In this document: in pieces, positions 16,085 through 19,563 of the stretch
Layout of the letters: every line of letters begins with the position of its first letter
Numbering within the stretch: the first letter of the stretch is position 1
Source: Rugosimonospora africana
GTDB taxonomy: Bacteria > Actinomycetota > Actinomycetes > Mycobacteriales > Micromonosporaceae
Direction of reading: 5' to 3'
Assembly (NCBI RefSeq): GCF_016862975.1
Contig: NZ_BONZ01000061.1
Location: forward strand, 1-64,000
Length of the DNA: 64,000 bases
The notes under the pieces: model-generated
Seen by the model: the letters and a program-made list of their open reading frames with translations, nothing else
Databases searched by the model: none
Told to the model about the DNA's origin: nothing
Made by a program: the position numbers and the translations under genes

Positions 16085-16148
16085 GCGGGTCGCACGGGGT
16101 GTGTGACTGTCGGCTGATTGGCTAAGCGAAGCTATTTGATAAGGTTCG

Positions 16149-16757
16149 ATGGTGTTGTTGCTTTCGTCAAGGTCTGGCGGCTGAGCGGATAGGTGTTCAT
16201 CCGGTGAGGTTGCGTCGTTGGGCGGATGAGGGTCGTGGTGACGCGGGTTGGTCGGGGACGCCGGTTCGATTCTGTGGTGTTGGATTTGTTCGCGGGGCGT
16301 GCTGTGGTGCGGGGTCCCCGGTATGAGGCGTTGTGTGTGCGGGTGTCGGGCACGACGGGGCAGGAGACGTCGTTGGTGGCCCAGGAGGCAGAAACTGCGG
16401 GCGGCGGCCAGCGGCGAGGTGGTCGCGGTGTTCAAGGACAGGGCGTCTGGGTTGCGGGAGAACTGGCAGGGATTGATCCGGCTGTTGAAGGCTGCGGCGG
16501 CCGGTGAGTTCACCGTGGTGCGGGTGGCTGGTCAGGATCGGTTGGCCCGGTTCGGCACCCAGTGGCGTTCGGCGTTGCTGGCCCGTGATGGGGCCGGTGT
16601 GGAGGTGGCGCATCCGAAAGGCTCGGCCGGCGGGGTCGAGGAACTACTGGCCGATTTCATGTCGTTGGTGGCCACGTTCGCTGGGCGGATGTACGGGATC
16701 CGGGATCGTGAGGCCAAGCGCCGGTTGCTGGACGCCGCTGGTGGGGATGTGGGCTAG
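16149..16757 (+). pseudogene. tnpA: IS607 TnpA serine recombinase, frame-broken
   Basis: Homology runs through three reading frames. In one, an N-terminal MerR-like helix-turn-helix reads LAAERIGVHPVRLRRWADEG (from 16174). In a second, TRVGRGRRFD and RYEALCVRVSGTTGQETSLV supply the catalytic serine domain start. In the third, LRAAASGEVVAVFKDRASGL, VRVAGQDRLARFG and MSLVATFAGRMYG complete the fold to the TAG at 16757. Shifts occur near 16170, 16225 and 16390. No single frame has a start codon and a full protein, so the transposase is dead unless several frameshifts are suppressed. Confidence 0.8.
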
Positions 16758-18730
16758 TGGCTGGTCGGGTGTTGGTGGCGACCGCGACGTGTGCCGCGTT
16801 TCGCGGGGTGTGTGGTGGCAGTCCTGATCGGCCGGGTGTGTCGCAGCCGGTGACGGGGCCGGTCCTGTCCGAGCGTGTCGGGTGGCTCGCGGACCTGGTG
16901 CAGGTGATAGCCGGTCAGGTCATCGCGCAGCATTGGGCGGATGCCGATCTTGCCCAGCTTGCTGGTGGCGTCGGTCCGGACGGGCGCGCTTTGCCGGGCA
17001 AGGGGTGGATGGCGCTGCGGCGGCTGGGTTGGGGTGCGGTCGCGCCTGAAGATGTGGTGGTCTCGGATCGGGTGCGGCGTGTCGCGCAGGAGGAGGCCGC
17101 CCGGGGTTTGCGGCTCGCGACCGGTCGCCGAGAGGTGATCGCTGCGCTGCTGGCGGCCTGGCCCAAGGATCCGTCCGCGCGTACGGGTGAGGAGTGGTCG
17201 GGGTTGCGGGCGGTGCTGCCTGGTGGGGTGGACAACGCGACGATCCGTAGCCGTACCCGGCAGATCAGCGCGTGGGTGGCCAGGAATGGTCGGCTGCCGA
17301 TTGGCCTGTGTGAGCTGGAATCGGCGCCGGGGGTCGCGCGGCAGGTGAGCCTGGCTGCCGCGGACCGGCAACAGGTCCGCGTCGAACGCCTCGACGAGGC
17401 CACGGTGCGGGTGTGGGTGCAGTTGCCGGTGTGCCCGGCCCCGTCGGGCTACCGGGACTGGGCGTGGCACGCCCTGACCGTCAGGTTGCCCCGGACGGTG
17501 CCTGTCACCGCGACGGTGTGTACCCCAACGCTGCGACCCGGTGACGGCAAGGTGCGGGTCGACCTGCCCTGGCAGATCCCACACACCCCACCACCACTGA
17601 CCGGCCACACCCGGGCGGTGGGCGTCGACTGGGGATTGAACACCCTGCTCACCTGCACCGTCGCCGACCTCGACCAGCAGGGTTCCCTGACCACAGCTGG
17701 TGGGCCGTTACGGTTCGACGCGACCGGCGTGTCCGCCAAACTCGTCCGGCTGCGCCGCCACCGCGAACAGGTCAAAACCAAACTCGACCACCTGACCCGG
17801 CTGTCCGAGGGCCGGCCTCCGGGCGCCGCACCCGACCCGGCACTGGGAAGCAAGCTCGGCCGGTTGCGGGTCGAACACGACGCGGTTTGCGCCCGGATCC
17901 GGCACCTGAACCAGGCCTTGGCGTGGTCGGCGGCCCGGTGGCTGGTCGACCACGCGAGCACCGTGGACGCGACCGTGATCTACCTCGAGGACCTCACCAC
18001 CCTCGAAGCGCGTGGCGGGTCGCGGAGTTTGAACCGGCGGTTGTCTGGCGCGGTCCGTGGCCTGGTGTTCACCGCGGTGACGCATCTGGCCGGCAAGGCC
18101 GGTATGACGGTAGTCCGGGTCCCGGCCCGGGGCACCTCGTCGGGCTGTCCTCGCTGCAATGGGGCGGTCCGGCACGTGAAGGCCCCGGACCGGGTGGTGG
18201 CCGGGTACCGGTGGACGATCTGCGGCTGCGGCCTGACCATGGATCGGGACCACGCCGCCGCCCGACGCATCGCCGCCCGCGGCCTAACCAACCAGACCAA
18301 CACCCGCCGCGAACGCGGCGATACCGCCCACGGCACCATTCGCACCGCCACCGACGTGCCGATCAGCCACCAGCCACGACGCGCCAAGAACCCGAGCGCC
18401 GCGGCCGCACCCAAGCCACGGCGGGACCGGCGCAAAAACGGTCCCACCCGCACACAAGTCCGACCTCGGACCGTGAAGACTCCACCCCTGCTGCCCTTGC
18501 GACGGCAGGCTCCCGCCCCGGCCCAGTTGCCCCAGGCAACCACCGGCAAGCGTCCGGCGGGACGGCTACCCCAGGAGACCCACCAGGTCCTCCAGGTACC
18601 GACCACGGTTCCCACACCACCCCGACACCCCCACCAGGTCCACGGGGCACTCCTCGGCCACGGCTTCCACCGCCACGTACACGCCACACCAGTACCCGCG
18701 GCGAAGACCGAACCGCCGAGGAACGGGTAG
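16757..18730 (+). CDS. tnpB: TnpB RNA-guided nuclease (IS607-associated)
   Basis: 657 residues. The RuvC nuclease is complete in its key positions: [11 protein letters not shown] (Asp291), [14 protein letters not shown] (Glu411), then a zinc ribbon CPRC (464-467) and CGC (489-491) followed by [13 protein letters not shown] (Asp498 or 496). The first 280 residues form the variable recognition lobe. After residue 510 comes a 147-residue tail rich in Arg, Pro and Thr with no fold, where the guide RNA is usually encoded. TnpB cuts DNA next to a short TAM using an omega/reRNA. The GTG start overlaps the tnpA stop by one base. Retention of all catalytic residues beside a dead tnpA is notable. Confidence 0.87.
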
Positions 18731-18765
18731 GAAACCAGAGACGCTCCTCGTCTAGGCTCACGGCC
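18480..18765 (+). ncRNA. Candidate omega/reRNA scaffold at the tnpB 3' end
   Basis: In IS605/IS607 elements the guide scaffold overlaps the 3' end of tnpB and ends at the element's right border. Here this part reads as low-complexity protein but contains stable hairpins: GTTGCC-CCA-GGCAAC (18528-18542) and CGTCC-GGCG-GGACG. This is inference from position and structure; the exact ends and the guide segment cannot be set by eye. Confidence 0.35.
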
Positions 18766-19563
18766 ATGCCGGACACGCAGTACGAAGACCTGCTCCGCCA
18801 CGTGCTCGACACGGGTGCCCGCAAGGAGGACCGCACCGGCACGGGTACCCGGTCGGTCTTCGGTCACCAACTGCGCTACCGGCTGTCCGACGGCTTCCCG
18901 CTGATCACTACGAAGAAGGTCCACTTCCGCTCGATCGCGTATGAGCTGCTGTGGTTCCTCCGCGGCGACGGGAACGTCACGTGGCTGCGCGACCACGGCG
19001 TCACCATCTGGGACGAGTGGGCGGGGCCGGACGGCGACCTCGGCCCGATCTACGGCGTGCAGTGGCGGTCGTGGCCGACCCCGGACGGCGGGCACATCGA
19101 CCAGATCAGCGAGGTGCTGCGTACGCTGCGCGAGAACCCCGGCTCCCGGCGGATCATCGTGTCCGCGTGGAACGTCGCCGACATCCCGCGGATGGCGTTG
19201 CCGCCGTGCCACGCGTTCTTCCAGTTCTACGTCGCCGACGGCAAGCTCTCCTGCCAGCTGTACCAGCGCAGCGCGGACCTGTTCCTCGGCGTGCCGTTCA
19301 ACATCGCGAGCTACGCGTTGCTGACCCACATGATCGCCGATCAGGTGGGCCTCGGCGTCGGGGACTTCATCTGGACCGGGGGCGACTGCCACATCTACGA
19401 CAACCACGAGGATCAGGTGCGCACGCAGCTCGCACGCGAGGCGCGACCGTTCCCCACGCTGAGCCTCGAACCGGCGGACAGCCTGTTCGACTACACCTAC
19501 GAGCACATCGCGCTCCACGGCTACGACCCGCACCCCGGCATCAAGGCGCCGGTGGCGGTGTGA
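18766..19563 (+). CDS. thyA: Thymidylate synthase
   Basis: 265 residues, full length. ThyA methylates dUMP to dTMP with methylene-tetrahydrofolate. Motifs: [11 protein letters not shown], the [10 protein letters not shown] loop, [12 protein letters not shown] carrying the catalytic cysteine, [22 protein letters not shown] and [13 protein letters not shown]; the C-terminus is KAPVAV as usual. The ATG lies 36 bp after the tnpB stop, so the promoter is either inside the element or in that short gap. It overlaps folA by 4 bp, a standard thyA-folA operon that recycles the dihydrofolate produced. Confidence 0.97.

What the first reader, a model, noticed from the sequence alone, without database searches (positions are those of the whole stretch)
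16149..18765. Intact TnpB beside a dead IS607 recombinase
TnpA is broken in three places, so the element cannot move alone, yet TnpB keeps Asp291, Glu411, the zinc ribbon and the final Asp. Retention may mean recent decay, trans mobilisation, or domestication of the nuclease. It sits 36 bp before thyA and may drive or affect that essential operon.
Basis: partly seen in the sequence, partly recalled or inferred. Interest (0 to 1): 0.55.

Follow-up and report, generated by a model that had tools for sequence, protein, structure and literature searches.

The report
Dead IS607 transposon keeping intact TnpB
A jumping gene next to thyA in a soil-type bacterium has lost its transposase but keeps what looks like a working RNA-guided DNA-cutting gene; this is a known kind of remnant, and its relatives show that the cutting gene can stay under selection without a transposase of its own.

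Summary
The element runs from about 16,096 to 18,745. Its IS607-type tnpA has three frameshifts. tnpB (16757-18730) is open and keeps D291, E411, D498 and four zinc cysteines. No second tnpB of this clade, and no intact IS607 TnpA, was found in the 11.1-Mb draft genome. Three other IS607-type elements there pair a broken or truncated tnpA with an open tnpB.

On the window branch tnpA is relaxed (omega 0.173 against 0.058) and tnpB is not (0.100 against 0.173). Of 88 tnpB loci examined, 22 have an intact tnpA. tnpA-less copies sit at several sites in single genomes, so trans mobilisation is likely in relatives; this copy has no TnpA to use now. The 3' end of tnpB overlaps a covarying RNA ending at the right end, a likely omegaRNA, whose guide would begin near 18,746 on the thyA promoter.

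thyA is not the only thymidylate synthase gene (thyX is present). None of 7 other thyA-bearing family genomes shows the element's right end upstream of thyA, so host domestication is unsupported. Dead-TnpA IS607 loci and TnpB-only elements are already in print. I call this a new member of a known kind.

The parts
16096..18745 (+). IS607-family element, left end to right end
   Evidence: homology to Micromonospora copies L012-L018 starts and stops at these places while their flanks differ; 1-2 bp uncertainty at the left end because no empty site was found
16096..16148 (+). left end (LE)
   Evidence: aligned with the LE of L012, L014, L018; LE also kept in tnpA-less L013, L015, L016
16149..16757 (+). 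tnpA pseudogene, IS607 serine recombinase, three frameshifts
   Evidence: profile match in three frames; open piece 16248-16754 scores 63.4 bits on NF033518, cut-off 110; intact L012, L014 and L007 score 119-126 bits
16757..18730 (+). tnpB, 657 aa, RNA-guided nuclease family (Cas12f/TnpB fold), RuvC and zinc residues kept
   Evidence: PF07282 41.1 bits, cut-off 26.3; NF040570 71.1 bits, below its cut-off of 100; residues; model and fold matches
18300..18730 (+). C-terminal tail of tnpB, mostly predicted disordered, overlapping the RNA scaffold
   Evidence: pLDDT below 50 for residues 534-657; fourfold-site divergence 0.35-0.76 of that in the core in six comparisons
18600..18745 (+). predicted omegaRNA/reRNA scaffold ending in the right-end motif AGAGACGCT (5' limit approximate)
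   Evidence: right-end motif in 69 of 88 loci; covarying closing helix; about 18 nt present in 6 Micromonospora copies are missing here
18746..18765 (+). predicted guide region = thyA promoter flank (inferred)
   Evidence: first flanking bases after the right end; guide position inferred from published IS607 TnpB work (PMC10711439, passages read)
18753..18758 (+). -10-like TAGGCT of a probably leaderless thyA promoter
   Evidence: same hexamer and spacing in family genome G012; DNA homology with G012 begins at 18749; inference, no transcript data; a sigma-70 pattern scan found nothing
18766..19560 (+). thyA, thymidylate synthase
   Evidence: NF002497 465.2 bits, cut-off 327

Best explanation
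This is an IS607-family insertion sequence that landed 20 bp upstream of thyA and then lost its recombinase TnpA by frameshifts. Its TnpB nuclease and the omegaRNA encoded at the 3' end of the tnpB frame stayed in place. Shown: the element ends, the three tnpA frameshifts, the open tnpB with catalytic and zinc residues, relaxation of tnpA but not tnpB on this branch, and the same asymmetry in other IS607-type elements of this genome and in many relatives. Inferred: TnpB binds an omegaRNA cut from its own mRNA, with a guide starting near 18,746 that reads the thyA promoter. It would cut chromosomes that lack the insertion at this site and so keep the element there through repair from an occupied copy. 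That selfish retention does not need TnpA in cis and would explain why tnpB outlives tnpA. A host function is not needed.
For: Ends and layout. Intact residues, and fold matches to Cas12f and to ISFba1/ISDra2 TnpB. Codon model: tnpB window branch omega 0.100 (about 0.07-0.15 within 2*dlnL 3.84), background 0.173; omega=1 rejected (2*dlnL 62). tnpA window branch 0.173 (about 0.10-0.33), background 0.058 (2*dlnL 11.0). The seven other tnpA tips gave 0.014-0.086 (L014, L007; L012, L018, L006, L038, L051). All three frameshifts fall in tnpA: 0.013 if spread by length. Five tnpA-less or remnant groups keep core omega 0.14-0.20. Covarying RNA at the right end; slower fourfold sites in the tail. Own genome: no IS607 TnpA over the cut-off, and three more elements with broken or truncated tnpA and open tnpB. 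Gene-drive use of TnpB against insertion-free plasmids is reported for IS200/605 (PMC11870625, abstract and outline seen).
Against: No expression, guide or cleavage data. The low tnpB omega mostly reflects the time before tnpA died; if the true baseline on this branch were about 0.06, a short neutral period could not be excluded. The window's RNA region lacks about 18 nt found in the 6 closest copies, so the omegaRNA may be impaired; it keeps 6 of 7 closing pairs and 7 of 10 in the central hairpin, where those copies have 7-8 of 10. NF040570 is below its cut-off. The TAM and the empty site are unknown. Relatives were found through tnpB, so their intact tnpB is partly by construction. The one group with intact tnpA tested had core omega 0.248 on very little divergence, so tnpB constraint with and without tnpA was not properly contrasted. 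One tnpB tip, L012, gave 0.737.
Confidence: 0.6

Rival explanations
1. Plain decay caught in passing: tnpA happened to break first, and tnpB is now neutral and has not yet been hit.
For: tnpA omega on the branch is still far below 1, so the death is not old. The RNA region has lost about 18 nt.
Against: tnpB is over three times longer than tnpA and has no frameshift or stop (0.013 for three of three in tnpA). tnpB omega shows no rise. Gaps in the tnpB tail against the six closest copies sum to multiples of three. The asymmetry recurs in three other elements of this genome and in relatives (sampled through tnpB).
Confidence: 0.22
2. Element mobilised in trans: the copy moved or was kept by a TnpA made by another copy.
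For: In M. sicca three tnpA-less copies share one deletion junction at unrelated sites, and two contigs of the same strain (L012, L018) have intact tnpA. Micromonospora sp. CB01531 has eight copies and Streptomyces sp. LBL four without intact tnpA, each homologous over one block that ends at the right end.
Against: No IS607 TnpA over the cut-off in the window's draft genome and no other tnpB of this clade. The tnpA here is full length and frameshifted, not cleanly deleted as in the M. sicca tnpA-less copies.
Confidence: 0.1
3. Host domestication: TnpB now serves the cell, for example as a regulator or a defence nuclease at thyA.
For: Open, constrained tnpB without a transposase; predicted guide on the thyA promoter (inferred).
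Against: Right-end motif not found upstream of thyA in any of 7 other thyA-bearing family genomes. Catalytic residues are intact, unlike nuclease-dead TldR repressors (recalled; a TldR paper was seen only in the listing). thyX is present.
Confidence: 0.06

Closest known systems
IS607-family elements with tnpB (for example ISXfa1, ISFba1)
   Same: serine-recombinase gene followed by an overlapping tnpB, RNA scaffold at the right end. PMC11061315 (section 5 read) reports 80% of its IS607 loci with both ORFs, 30% of those TnpAs pseudo
   Different: large TnpB (657 aa) whose frame runs through the RNA scaffold into the right end; PMC11061315 states that the reRNA of its RAGATH-18 IS607 TnpBs lies outside the coding sequence (passages read)
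Micromonospora sicca and Micromonospora sp. ATA32 elements (L012-L018)
   Same: 67-71% TnpB identity over the matched stretch; the same right-end motif in L012-L017
   Different: L012, L014 and L018 have intact tnpA; L013, L015 and L016 have a clean tnpA deletion rather than frameshifts; L017 starts inside tnpB at a contig end
TnpB-only non-autonomous transposons
   Same: TnpB without a working TnpA; a review says tnpB is more frequently carried by non-autonomous transposons (PMC6452270, passages read)
   Different: here a full-length dead tnpA is still present

Membership tests
IS607-family element | serine-recombinase tnpA upstream of tnpB on the same strand | tested here: met
   present as a three-frame pseudogene; intact in three relatives over the NF033518 cut-off
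IS607-family element | ends shared with copies at other sites | tested here: met
   ends conserved and flanks unrelated among the Micromonospora copies
IS607-family element | insertion at a matching dinucleotide without target duplication | tested here: inconclusive
   one search for an empty site found none; the base after the right end varies among 69 loci
TnpB RNA-guided nuclease | RuvC D/E/D and zinc ribbon | tested here: met
TnpB RNA-guided nuclease | Cas12f/TnpB fold | tested here: met
   confident core, disordered tail; Foldseek best Cas12f E 8.8e-14, ISFba1 TnpB 1.1e-8, ISDra2 TnpB 2.0e-7 and 1.7e-5; TM-scores by target 0.35-0.50 for the TnpBs
TnpB RNA-guided nuclease | score over the NCBIfam guided_TnpB cut-off | tested here: not met
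   71.1 against 100 bits. A model cut-off, not a defining trait; I call it a divergent TnpB on residues, fold, locus and PF07282
TnpB RNA-guided nuclease | structured guide RNA at the right end | tested here: met
   covariation on 43 loci, with the reservations given in Tried and rejected; transcription not testable
TnpB RNA-guided nuclease | guided DNA cleavage next to a TAM | not testable with these tools
   needs biochemistry
TldR (nuclease-dead TnpB repressor) | loss of RuvC catalytic residues (recalled) | tested here: not met
   D291, E411 and D498 intact
pro-Fanzor IS607 TnpB | DPG and alternative-Glu active-site signature | tested here: not met
   motif is VDWG and E411 is conserved in YLEDL; signature from PMC10711439 passages
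host-domesticated TnpB | same locus in related species | tested here: not met
   0 of 7 other thyA-bearing family genomes; no same-genus genome seen

The most novel reading that the evidence does not exclude
In this actinobacterial clade TnpB is a stand-alone RNA-guided homing nuclease. Once TnpA dies, the insertion becomes a fixed element that is kept and spread at its own site (here the thyA promoter) by cutting insertion-free chromosomes, for example among the many genome copies of a hypha or after DNA transfer. It would be the RNA-guided counterpart of a homing endonuclease, with an ORF that runs through its whole guide-RNA scaffold.
Probability: 0.2. Interest if true: 0.7.

Novelty: new member of a known kind. 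Interest (0 to 1): 0.32.

Why it matters
Why TnpB is so often found without TnpA is an open question. This clade offers cases for a direct test: intact, frameshifted and cleanly deleted tnpA beside constrained tnpB, several copies per genome, and a flank that should act as guide. The window copy itself is one more example.

Tried and rejected
Single-sequence scans of genome contigs and viral contigs found no relative. An alignment query found 199 relatives in genome contigs, of which the best 80 were kept, and none in viral contigs. tnpB searches of family and order genomes: 1 of 61 matched, the own one; 2 of 61 matched, the own one and a 30% partial match in G075. In Rfam nothing reached a gathering score; two weak matches are listed. 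The empty site was sought once, in plasmids, without success. No promoter or terminator pattern at 18300-19000.

RNA structure: RNAalifold on A3 gave only 8 pairs. I replaced it with helices read from single folds of the same sequences and counted them, so the share of paired cells is biased upward; it is 82.0% against 78.3% in column shuffles (0 of 500 as high) and 30-41% when slid. Of 46 cells with both-side change, 24 lie in the closing helix, and 20 of these at three pairs with counts of 6-7, most simply one switch shared by the seven Micromonospora-type sequences (window and six copies). Against the structure: 'further pair types' is reached by 479 of 500 shuffles, and pairs with both-side change by 48 of 500; helices 5 and 6 pair in only 68.6% and 60.6% of cells.

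A search of the own genome for the guide sequence was not run either.

Dropped before counts: the right-end motif was not found in 19 of 88 loci, left out of RNA work; 43 of the 69 were used in A3. Two loci had too little upstream sequence for tnpA. The codon models used 10 tnpB and 8 tnpA sequences and six groups of 3-8 loci.

Full report
What is there. The element spans about 16,096-18,745 on the plus strand. Its limits come from aligning it with Micromonospora copies whose flanks are unrelated: homology starts at the left end and stops after the right-end motif CCAGAGACGCT, which in the window ends at 18,745. tnpA occupies 16149-16757 in three reading frames. tnpB (16757-18730) starts in the tnpA stop (TAGTG) and ends 15 bases before the right end. 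thyA begins at 18766, 20 bases after the right end.

tnpB is a divergent TnpB. Pfam Cas12f1-like_TNB is over its cut-off (41.1 against 26.3 bits); NCBIfam guided_TnpB is not (71.1 against 100). D291, E411, D498 and four zinc cysteines are in place. Among the 88 aligned loci D291 is Asp in 87, E411 is Glu in 85 and D498 is Asp in 86; the misses are L009 (split tnpB), L010 (broken) and L018 (contig end). The D291 region was a search motif, so that count is partly by construction. The model has a confident core and a tail of low confidence (residues 534-657). The best solved matches are Cas12f and, lower, ISFba1 and ISDra2 TnpB.

Own genome. Searches found one tnpB of this clade and one 184-nt tnpA fragment elsewhere. 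The IS607 TnpA model gives 10 matches, none over its cut-off. At three of these sites an open tnpB follows: C61:125 kb and C40:46 kb, where tnpA is broken by stops and frame changes, and C66:99.6 kb, where only the 3' half of tnpA is recognisable. So four elements in this genome, the window's included, have a dead or truncated tnpA and an open tnpB. The guided_TnpB model gives 18 matches in all; the one Y1 transposase found lies beside the tnpB at C135. The genome is a draft of 219 contigs, 97.3% complete.

Relatives. Of 88 tnpB loci (the window, 7 plasmid loci, and 80 of the 199 genome contigs relatives), 22 have an intact tnpA upstream, 16 a remnant (window included), 48 none detected, and 2 too little sequence. 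Copies from one genome are counted apart: 5 of the 22 are from Streptomyces sp. NBC_01446, and 8 loci without intact tnpA are from Micromonospora sp. CB01531. 'Intact' means at least 90% of the family profile in one frame; 'none' means no match to that profile within 2.5 kb upstream. In 5 of the 88 the matched tnpB stretch holds stops. In M. sicca three copies (L013, L015, L016) keep about 43 bases of left end joined to the 3' end of tnpA at the same place, at unrelated sites, while L012 and L018 of the same strain have intact tnpA. The eight CB01531 copies and four LBL copies are each homologous over one block that starts at a similar place upstream (later in L036) and ends at the right end; their left ends were not checked by motif. 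I read this as movement after tnpA loss, with TnpA supplied in trans. Parallel deletions are not excluded.

Selection. A tnpB neutral for 12% of the branch on a 0.173 baseline would show about 0.27, which is rejected (2*dlnL 21); with a lower baseline it would be less clear. Other tnpB tips gave 0.188-0.219 and one (L012) 0.737. Five tnpA-less or remnant groups keep tnpB core omega 0.14-0.20; the single group with intact tnpA gave 0.248 on little divergence. So tnpB stays constrained without tnpA in cis.

Guide RNA. A right-end motif was found in 69 of 88 loci. In 53 of these 69 the tnpB stop lies within the last 30 bases of the element, in 10 beyond its end, and in 6 at 33-34 bases before it. 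Fourfold sites in the tail change less than in the core in all six comparisons (ratios 0.35-0.76; the 95% interval clearly excludes 1 in two of six), and tail omega is higher (0.26-0.60), as expected for an RNA inside the frame. A multi-helix structure pairs 82% of cells on 43 sequences against 30-41% when slid, with both-side changes in the closing helix (reservations in Tried and rejected). The window keeps 6 of 7 closing pairs but lacks about 18 nt that the six closest copies have. By analogy with published TnpBs (PMC10711439 and PMC10278001, passages read) the guide would start at 18,746 or one base later and read the thyA promoter. That is inference.

thyA. The genome also encodes ThyX, so thyA is not the sole route to thymidylate. 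Among 101 family genomes (own included) 8 carry a clear thyA DNA match, and of these only the window's has the right-end motif upstream. G012 keeps the TAGGCT hexamer 7 bases before the ATG, and homology to it begins at the fourth base after the right end. The element therefore sits directly upstream of a probably leaderless -10 region; whether this changes thyA expression is unknown.

Compared with what is known. A published survey reports IS607 loci with pseudo TnpA beside TnpB (PMC11061315, section 5 read), and a review states that tnpB is more frequently carried by non-autonomous transposons (PMC6452270, passages read). A search of the held library for papers holding TnpB, Streptomyces and Micromonospora together found none, so I saw no description of this large-TnpB actinobacterial clade; most subscription papers are not held. 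What this adds is a clade in which constraint on tnpB after tnpA loss can be measured and tested.

Noticed in passing
G000:C61:125033-126734 (L137), C40:46085-47805 (L138), C66:99562-101072 (L139), same genome as the window: Three further IS607-type elements: tnpA broken in L137 and L138, only its 3' half recognisable in L139; tnpB open in all three.
   Followed up: partly
G000:C15:267977-268561: ThyX is encoded in the same genome as ThyA; 8 of 101 family genomes had a clear thyA DNA match.
   Followed up: partly
window 18753-18765: thyA looks leaderless: a -10-like hexamer sits 7 bases before the ATG, and by eye similar hexamers precede thyA in several other family genomes.
   Followed up: no
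L012 1204-2774: The left end of this M. sicca copy is split by about 1.5 kb of other DNA, and its tnpB tip shows a high omega of 0.737.
   Followed up: no
L029, L032, L077 (Streptomyces sp. LBL): tnpA-less copies share about 340 bases upstream of the tnpB match that do not match the tnpA profile; what that leader holds is unknown.
   Followed up: no
L009 (Mycolicibacterium plasmid pTY66_01): The mirror case: intact IS607 tnpA beside a split tnpB.
   Followed up: no
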